Shown here one piece after another: positions 1 through 1,189 of a stretch of 64,000 bases of DNA. A program made the translations under genes and the position numbers. Source of the DNA: Tateyamaria sp. Alg231-49 (GTDB lineage Bacteria; Pseudomonadota; Alphaproteobacteria; Rhodobacterales; Rhodobacteraceae); assembly GCF_900143535.1 (NCBI RefSeq), contig NZ_FRFA01000007.1, forward strand, positions 1-64,000, read 5' to 3'. The notes below the pieces were generated by a model. It was not told the origin of the DNA. It searched no databases and worked only from the letters and a program-made list of their open reading frames with translations. The number at the start of each line of letters is the position of its first letter. Position 1 is the first letter of the stretch.

Positions 1-138
1 GTCCGCGCCCAACCATGCTGAGAGGGCACGGAAACCGGTAGGTGCATTGGGAAAGCGCGCTGTGCCTCCATCGCTTAACCGATGCGCTTCCAGAAAGTCC
101 TTCGAAATATCAATGCCTATGCTATCATCTGTCATCAT
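1..138 (-). mobile_element. IS110-family transposase (recombinase), 5' part, cut by left edge
   Basis: Read on the minus strand, the first 138 bases encode the N terminus of an IS110-type DEDD recombinase. The segment IGIDISKDFLEAHRL followed by FPNAPTGFRAL and WLGAD has the typical layout of the RuvC-like N-terminal domain, whose first catalytic Asp is the D of GID. The frame stays open to base 1, so only about 46 codons are seen. Start codons are possible at 144, 138 and 135; an AGGA box at 149-146 sits 7 nt from the ATG at 138, so I prefer that one. Members of this family insert through an RNA-guided mechanism, and the upstream region holds a candidate guide RNA. Whether the gene is intact beyond the edge is unknown. 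Confidence 0.75.
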
Positions 139-149
139 CGTCATGTCCT

Positions 150-309
150 ATGCTTGTCATGCAAGCCCATGAAAAATCCAGCTTGCGTATCCGTTCAGGC
201 CTCATGCGAAGACGGCGGCTGACCATACTCGAAAACGGTCCCTCACGACCAAGCCCAAAGCGATCCAGCCGCCACCACTGCCAGCCATAAATGGCTTGGC
301 CGGCAGTGG
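150..309 (-). ncRNA. candidate IS110 bridge RNA / structured left end of the IS
   Basis: The gene-free stretch upstream of the recombinase (minus strand, reading from 309 down) folds into ordered stems. First is a hairpin, 309-302 paired with 282-275 (CCACTGCC/GGCAGTGG), with a 5-bp inner stem at 296-292/287-283 and a 5-nt one-sided bulge. Next is an 8-bp stem, 273-266/221-214 (GGCGGCTG/CAGCCGCC), enclosing a symmetric 15/15-nt internal loop (265-251 and 236-222) capped by a 4-bp stem (250-247/240-237). Last are two short stems near 184-150 (GCAAGC/GCTTGC and GCTTG/CAAGC). A 5' hairpin followed by guide-sized internal loops upstream of the recombinase is the plan of IS110-group bridge RNAs. 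The role is inferred; ends and promoter are not defined. Confidence 0.4.
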
Positions 310-457
310 CTCAATCTTTGCAGATCGATAAGGAAAGCATAAGACAAGCCCGAAGCAGCCTTGTCGCCAAGGGTTTTCATGTTGTCATAGATCAAGGCCG
401 CTATCATGCACAAACGTCAAACTGGACCACTCTGCAGGGGCTGATCAGAATTTTTGG
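310..457. other. non-coding stretch, probable IS110 left end and junction
   Basis: I see no convincing gene between the candidate bridge RNA and the promoter at 458. An open frame on the plus strand (291-518, 75 codons) starts right after a stop codon inside the 275-309 hairpin, has no ribosome binding site and resembles nothing I know. The outer boundary of the insertion sequence should lie in or near this stretch but cannot be placed from one end only. Confidence 0.35.
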
Positions 458-486: not shown

Positions 487-532
487 ACGGCGAAAGTGTG
501 TCGGGCTTTGCCCTGTAATGAGGATTAGTTTT

Positions 533-1189
533 ATGAAAACCTTGATTATCGCAGCTATTGCAGCTGCAAACTTTGGAGCGGCAGCTCAAGCTTCTACCGT
601 GAATCTCGTCACTAACGGCAGTTTCGAAGATACTCCAGACTTCAGTGGAAGCTGGAGAGTGTTTCAGGGCGCGGAGCTGGATGGTTGGGAAGTCCAGTCC
701 GGCGCAGGCGTCGAAATCCAAACAAATTCTGTCGGCAGCGTTCTGGATACGCTCTGGGGCACGAAATACGTTGAGCTTGACAGCCACAACGGCAATGGTG
801 GTGCGACAACCGGGCCGACAAATTCGGCGATCGGGCAGGACATTTTTCTGAGCGCCGGGCACTACTTGCTGTCGTTCTACTATTCGCCCCGCGTGAACTC
901 TCTCGGAACCGATACCAATGGTATTGATTACAGCATTGCCGGCGTGAGCGGGTCCGCATCCGGCCCCAACGACGATTTCCGCTTTGGTGAGTGGACGCTA
1001 ATTGAGGAAACCGTCAAAATTGACGTGGGCGACACGTATAAGCTCCTGTTTGCGGCGACCGGTGGCGATGAAACGCTCGGTGGCCTGATTGATAACGTGT
1101 CGTTGACCGCTGTGCCACTGCCTGCTGGTATGCTTTTGCTTATGACGGCTCTCGGCGGCCTTGGCATTGCCCGCCGTCAAAAAGGCTGA
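533..1189 (+). CDS. VPLPA-CTERM sorting domain-containing exported protein
   Basis: A 218-residue exported protein of unknown function. It starts with a signal peptide (Lys-2, hydrophobic stretch, cleavage near AQAS), continues with a beta-rich NLVTNGSFED segment like those in DUF642 and related extracellular carbohydrate-binding-like domains, and ends with VPLPAG, a hydrophobic helix and a basic tail (ARRQKG). That tripartite tail is the VPLPA-CTERM signal, which in Rhodobacteraceae is processed by a dedicated exosortase, so the mature protein is probably delivered to the cell surface or exopolysaccharide matrix. The ATG at 533 is chosen over an in-frame ATG at 518 because AGGA at 521-524 lies 8 nt before it. 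No exosortase gene is in the window. A terminator follows. Confidence 0.85.
   Translation: MKTLIIAAIAAANFGAAAQASTVNLVTNGSFEDTPDFSGSWRVFQGAELDGWEVQSGAGVEIQTNSVGSVLDTLWGTKYVELDSHNGNGGATTGPTNSAIGQDIFLSAGHYLLSFYYSPRVNSLGTDTNGIDYSIAGVSGSASGPNDDFRFGEWTLIEETVKIDVGDTYKLLFAATGGDETLGGLIDNVSLTAVPLPAGMLLLMTALGGLGIARRQKG

What the first reader, a model, noticed from the sequence alone, without database searches (positions are those of the whole stretch)
1..309. IS110-family element with a candidate bridge RNA at its left end
Only the first codons of the recombinase are in the window, yet the upstream 160 nt on the same strand fold into a bridge-RNA-like order: a bulged 5' hairpin (309-275), then an 8-bp stem (273-266/221-214) enclosing a symmetric 15/15-nt internal loop capped by a 4-bp stem, then two small stems next to the start codon. 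IS110-group elements use such an RNA to pair with target and donor DNA. The stems and loop sizes are visible in the sequence; the function is inference. If real, GATCGCTTTGGGCTT and GTTTTCGAGTATGGT (minus strand) would be the two guide strands of the first loop.
Basis: partly seen in the sequence, partly recalled or inferred. Interest (0 to 1): 0.75.

Follow-up and report, generated by a model that had tools for sequence, protein, structure and literature searches.

The report
IS110 jumping gene with bridge RNA

Summary
Observation confirmed, interpretation supported. The window opens inside an IS110-group insertion sequence (minus strand) with 9 left and 9 right ends in the draft genome, 2 copies complete. 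Its true left boundary is a CT core at 347-348, not 309. The leader folds as 5' hairpin, target loop, donor loop; across 38 related left ends, 30 of 39 pairs show two-sided changes. Between relatives, guides and insertion sites co-vary beyond all 20,000 shuffles. The second loop matches the element's own ends. Joined ends form a TTGACC-17-TATGCT promoter-like site. A relaxed pattern of the target, a palindrome-like repeat, finds 27 unoccupied places, reversed control 0. RNA expression and recombination are inferred. New member of a published class (bridge RNA/seekRNA). Least explored: the ribosome-binding site, and in most relatives the start codon, can pair within donor-loop stems.

The parts
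1..144 (-). 5' part of the IS110 recombinase gene (first 48 of 314 codons; the rest is beyond the contig end; full copies in C12 and C20)
1..346 (-). left part of the insertion sequence; right donor sequence TGTCTTATG starts at 346
347..348 (-). CT core shared by target and element ends
349..356 (-). left target flank of this copy, GCTTCGGG, 7 of 8 identical to the left target guide
336..341 (-). -10-like TATGCT; completed by TTGACC of the right end only when the ends are joined (17-base spacer); activity inferred
274..310 (-). 5' hairpin of the bridge RNA
214..273 (-). target-binding loop: outer stem 273-267/220-214, GATC/GGTC helix 265-262/224-221, cap 250-247/240-237
252..261 (-). left target guide GCTTTGGG plus core CT
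228..236 (-). right target guide GTTTTCG plus core AG; 227 is the handshake position facing the donor A before the core
136..211 (-). donor-binding loop: outer stem 211-205/142-136, CCT/AGG helix 199-197/149-147, cap stem 186-181/166-161
187..194 (-). left donor guide ACGGATAC, identical to the right end of the element up to the core C
153..158 (-). right donor guide GACAAG, complementary to core and left end CT-TGTC; 152 (C) is the handshake position facing target base -1 (G)
146..149 (-). AGGA, likely Shine-Dalgarno, of which AGG pairs with CCT 199-197

Best explanation
The window begins in the left end of a multicopy IS110-group element whose leader encodes a bridge RNA. Proposed cycle: the element leaves as a circle; the joined ends form a promoter that transcribes the leader; the RNA's donor loop pairs with the joined ends (ACGGATA-CT-TGTC) and its target loop pairs with both strands of a genomic site around a shared CT core; the recombinase bound to the RNA then recombines the circle into that site. 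The programmed site here is GCTTTGGG-CT-CGAA, part of a palindrome-like repeat of this genome. Shown by sequence: element ends, fold, covariation of stems, complementarity of guides to sites and to element ends, and its covariation between elements. Inferred by homology to IS621: circle, transcription, RNA-protein complex, strand exchange.
For: Nine left and nine right ends in one genome with a common CT core. Left guide: 7 of 9 flanks match at 7-8 of 8, while 9 of 6,087 CT sites of the window do; right guide: CGAA at 9 of 9, against 30 of 6,087. Between elements: right guide 104 of 189 against shuffled mean 57.5, maximum 79; left guide 128 of 200 against 76.7, maximum 103 (two registers allowed in both), 20,000 shuffles each. 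Stem covariation 0.437 against 0.185 shuffled. Donor guide ACGGATAC in 37 of 38, equal to the right end; L096 and L072 changed guide and end together. Handshake base Watson-Crick to target base -1 in 32 of 38, shuffled mean 21.4, 0 of 20,000 as high. Protein: PF01548, PF02371, NF033542, and sequence match to the solved IS621 and ISCro4 recombinases. TTG at one fixed distance from the right-end core in 33 of 33 elements.
Against: No expression or activity data. Two of nine left flanks (C21, C7) match at only 4 of 8. The flanks are not fully independent: several copies sit in similar repeats. L044 fails and L047 is partial at the right guide. L084 has guide and right end that disagree. In the fixed register the left-guide signal is weaker, 95 of 225 against a shuffled maximum of 92. 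Shuffles do not remove relatedness. Parts of the donor outer stem pair poorly (11, 15 and 17 unpaired of 38 at its three inner pairs). No exact empty site was found. The window's own copy is cut by the contig end.
Confidence: 0.95

Rival explanations
1. The leader is only a structured 5' UTR controlling recombinase translation, and the protein alone chooses sites.
For: The Shine-Dalgarno AGG faces CCU in 37 of 38 left ends and the start codon can often pair. ISPpu9, an IS110-family element, has a leader structure that limits translation (abstract).
Against: It does not predict that loop strands track each element's own flanks or that donor guide and right end change together in L096 and L072. 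The two roles can coexist.
Confidence: 0.03
2. The CGAA after the right core belongs to the element, not to the target, so the right-guide match in this genome is a match to the element itself.
For: CGAA is shared by 9 of 9 right ends in this genome.
Against: In relatives the bases after ATA-CT differ and follow that element's own loop strand (CCAA, CAAA, CAGA, CACT, TTAG). Unoccupied repeats read GGG-CT-C and on to (A/G)AGC without a break.
Confidence: 0.02
3. It is an IS1111-type element with its guide RNA on the other side of the gene.
For: Same recombinase superfamily.
Against: The non-coding left end is 202 bases and the right end 12 bases from stop codon to core; all covarying structure is on the left. 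IS1111 has the long end on the right and long subterminal inverted repeats (passages).
Confidence: 0.005

Closest known systems
IS621 with its bridge RNA (Durrant et al. 2024, PMC11208160: abstract, sections 5-6, passages; Hiraizumi et al. 2024, PMC11208158: passages)
   Same: Recombinase homologous over 9-305; RNA in the left end; 5' hairpin, target loop, donor loop in that order; CT core; 8-base left donor guide; handshake base; promoter across the joined ends; palindromic repeat as target.
   Different: Different target and guides; extra conserved GATC/GRTC helix closing the target loop in this clade; the pairing of Shine-Dalgarno and start codon was not mentioned in the passages I searched.
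ISEc21 and other IS110-type elements with seekRNA (Siddiquee et al. 2024, PMC11187229: passages)
   Same: Non-coding region upstream of the gene, guide strands complementary to each target strand, natural reprogramming between relatives.
   Different: The seekRNA there is a 70-100 nt processed form; RNA length here is unknown.
IS110 elements in REP sequences: ISPa11, ISPpu9, ISPpu10, ISRm19 (Tobes and Pareja is recalled as authorship; PMC1525189: passages)
   Same: Copies sit in a palindrome-like repeat.
   Different: A different repeat; I did not show it to be extragenic everywhere or a REP in the strict sense.
ISPpu9 leader (PMC8450116: abstract)
   Same: Ribosome-binding site inside a folded leader of an IS110-family element.
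   Different: Here the candidate occluding stems are those of the donor-binding loop; no antisense RNA was looked for.

Membership tests
IS110 family, IS110 group | DEDD (PF01548) plus C-terminal serine domain (PF02371) recombinase of about 300-460 aa | tested here: met
   314 aa, both Pfam domains over cut-off, NF033542 205 bits over cut-off 140
IS110 family, IS110 group | long left and short right non-coding end | tested here: met
   202 and 12 bases
IS110 family, IS110 group | leader RNA with 5' hairpin and two internal-loop stem-loops, structurally conserved | tested here: met
IS110 family, IS110 group | first loop pairs with both strands of the target around the core | tested here: met
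   by complementarity and covariation; pairing itself not assayed
IS110 family, IS110 group | second loop pairs with the element's own joined ends | tested here: met
   ACGGATAC 37 of 38 and GACAAG; two joint changes, one counter-case L084
IS110 family, IS110 group | short ATA / TAT repeats flanking the donor core | tested here: met
   ATA-CT-TGTCT-TAT; feature as described in a passage of PMC11208160
IS110 family, IS110 group | promoter formed by the joined ends | tested here: inconclusive
   TTGACC-17-TATGCT; TTG at one offset in 33 of 33; activity not testable
IS110 family, IS110 group | RNA expressed, bound by the recombinase, reprogrammable | not testable with these tools
   needs RNA sequencing and recombination assays
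IS1111 group | guide RNA downstream of the gene with a long right end | tested here: not met
   right end only 12 bases

The most novel reading that the evidence does not exclude
In this alphaproteobacterial clade the bridge RNA is also a switch on its own recombinase message: its donor loop pairs the Shine-Dalgarno (AGG in 38 of 38, CCU in 37 of 38) and its outer stem takes in the first codons and usually the start codon. A transcript would be either guide or message, coupling recombinase dose to guide supply and limiting transposition.
Probability: 0.4. Interest if true: 0.55.

Novelty: new member of a known kind. Interest (0 to 1): 0.37.

Why it matters
The target of an unstudied insertion sequence was read from its leader and then borne out by its genomic copies and relatives. 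The clade gives a natural set of guide changes (25 distinct left guides; 21 distinct right guides with a right flank) over a nearly constant donor loop, and further recombinases that could be tested as programmable DNA-insertion tools. It also makes a simple question testable: does folding of the bridge RNA hold back translation of the recombinase?

Tried and rejected
Core first placed at GC because both complete copies share ...GAAGC at the right; dropped when relatives showed the element ending at ATA-CT and unoccupied sites were found. My first target pattern, with one base too many, gave 16 hits against 8 for the reversed control, little above noise; corrected patterns gave 6 against 0 and 27 against 0. 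The column chosen for the left guide was off by one and corrected. Rfam gave nothing. The empty site of the window's own copy was sought in 19 congeners: only stretches of about 50 bases matched, in 2 of them. The left flank of the C12 copy is identical over at least 150 bases to the flank of an unoccupied repeat at C22, but the right flanks differ, so it is not an exact empty site. The three other IS110 loci of the genome tried (L015-L017) gave no hit to the RNA model.

Rows dropped before counts: of 46 distinct left ends, eight chosen by hand as near-duplicates (L057, L061, L066, L069, L072, L074, L085, L086) were left out of alignment A1, so structure and handshake counts rest on 38. Loci with cut or unrecognised ends gave no left or no right value. 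The shuffles use one site per distinct guide, the first met; for the guide shared by L044 and L045 this was the poorly matching L044.

Full report
What was checked. The minus strand of window 1-420 was read. The open frame from 144 runs off the contig start.

The element. The window is the start of contig C15 of a 39-contig draft genome; its first 350 or so bases recur at eight other places at 99-100% identity, and a search with the right end finds nine places. C12 and C20 hold complete copies, with a common block of 1,172 bases and an open frame of 314 codons. The protein matches PF01548, PF02371 and NF033542, named 'IS110 family RNA-guided transposase', and by sequence the solved IS621 and ISCro4 recombinases. 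The nine left and nine right junctions together with relatives put the ends at CT-TGTCTTATG and GACGGATA-CT.

The target guides. The 5' strand of the first loop reads GCTTTGGG-CT. Seven of nine left flanks match at 7 or 8 of 8 positions and two (C21, C7) at 4; of 6,087 CT sites in the window on both strands, 9 reach 7 (the element's own loop is among the sites scanned). The 3' strand reads GTTTTCG-AG; all nine right flanks begin CGAA, against 30 of 6,087 CT sites. Several copies sit in similar repeats, so these flanks are not nine independent draws. The stronger test is between elements. From 46 distinct left ends, the right guide matches its own flank at 104 of 189 positions over 21 distinct guides (shuffled mean 57.5, maximum 79 in 20,000), with 20, 18, 19 and 15 of 21 at the first four positions. 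The left guide matches at 128 of 200 over 25 guides when two registers are allowed in observed and shuffled data alike (mean 76.7, maximum 103 in 20,000); in the fixed register it is 95 of 225 against 67.4, maximum 92. Among the closest relatives (74-84% identity) with a right flank, the flank follows the guide in L043 (CCAA), L046 and L052 (CAAA), L064 (CAGA) and L045 (CACT); it fails in L044 and is partial in L047.

The target. In the same genome, sequences of the form TTTGGGCTC.(A/G)AGC.G.C.TTCGCTGC occur at 27 places within three mismatches, against none for the reversed control; a stricter pattern gave 6 against 0. They read through the core without a break, which fixes the insertion point. 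The centre GCTTTG-GGCT-CGAAGC and its variants can pair with themselves, so the target is palindrome-like, as for other IS110 elements in REP sequences (PMC1525189, passages). That it is a true REP is my inference.

The donor loop. The second loop carries ACGGATAC in 37 of 38 left ends, identical to the right end ACGGATA-C, and GACAAG, complementary to CT-TGTC. The exceptional L096 has AGGGATAC in the loop and AGGGATA-CT at its end; L072 has ACAGATAC and ACAGATA-CT. L084 is a counter-case: loop ACGGATAC, end ACAGATA-CA. The base after the right donor guide, the handshake position of Hiraizumi et al. (passages), is Watson-Crick to target base -1 in 32 of 38 elements (shuffled mean 21.4, none of 20,000 as high).

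Structure covariation. On 38 left ends, 39 named pairs form in 90.9% of cells (77.3% shuffled; 35-54% when slid by 1-3 columns); 30 pairs have two-sided changes, and 212 cells are double-changed (shuffled mean 61.4). The weak parts are the donor outer stem (78.8% paired; 11, 15 and 17 unpaired of 38 at its three inner pairs) and two pairs of the target outer stem (10 and 8 unpaired). The CCU/AGG helix hardly varies and so gives no covariation evidence. The named structure was drawn from the fold and the alignment, which favours it over the slid versions. A covariance model built from the alignment scores 155-198 bits at the nine left ends of this genome and 12.6 bits at the only other place listed, 150 of 1,318 first-look candidates having been scored. 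The window's left end is in the training set, so this shows specificity, not independent discovery. Rfam holds no matching family at the thresholds used.

Promoter. Joined ends read TTGACC-17 bases-TATGCT. In 33 of 33 distinct elements with both ends recognised, the TTG lies at the same distance from the right-end core; the TAT offset was part of how left ends were recognised and is not independent. A promoter rebuilt at the circle junction is the published arrangement (PMC11208160, section 5). Activity is not shown.

A less explored feature. AGG of the likely Shine-Dalgarno is present in 38 of 38 and CCU opposite it in 37 of 38. In the 32 of 38 left ends with ATG in the same columns, 21, 24 and 28 can pair the A, U and G of the start codon with the strand before the donor stem; the outermost of those partners is also used by the target-loop stem. 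In six single folds the region folds this way, but none of these short folds beats its shuffles clearly (z from -1.48 to +0.40). For ISPpu9, a leader structure likely including the ribosome-binding site lowers translation (abstract). In the texts of the three 2024 bridge/seekRNA papers I searched for Shine, ribosome and mRNA, and in all three for start codon, and saw no statement of this link. It is a hypothesis with a simple test.

Host. A congener (G411) carries an element with the same flanks as one titled uncultured Tateyamaria sp., so the host is probably a Rhodobacteraceae bacterium near Tateyamaria; this is inference. In 19 other genomes of the genus, G411 alone had a protein match at E 1e-40 or better.

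Verdict. The finding is real and correctly read: an IS110-group element with a bridge RNA whose guides can be named. It is a new member of a kind described in 2024 (PMC11208160: abstract, sections 5-6 and passages; PMC11208158 and PMC11187229: passages). Whether this particular element already has an ISfinder name could not be checked here.

Noticed in passing
window 395-450: A stretch of about 50 bases beside the element matches near the ends of other contigs of this genome (C9, C14, C32) and of two congeners at 80-87%, as a repeated mobile-element end would.
   Followed up: partly
window 518-1189: A predicted secreted protein ending in VPLPAGMLLLMTALGGLGIARRQKG, which from recall resembles a VPLPA/PEP-CTERM sorting signal.
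   Followed up: no
L056, L057, L060-L062, L066-L069, L071, L072, L074: Twelve relatives in several genera share one left guide and insert at GCGGAG-CT-CGACCG-like sites; six of the twelve have the identical 16-base left flank, as if one conserved site were used across genera.
   Followed up: partly
L013 and L117: The left flank of the C12 copy is identical over at least 150 bases to the flank of an unoccupied target repeat at C22, while the right flanks differ; recombination between copies or an assembly join could explain it.
   Followed up: partly
P0001: The recombinase also has a weak match (26.4 bits, cut-off 100) to NF052498, TIGR-Tas RNA-guided endonuclease.
   Followed up: no
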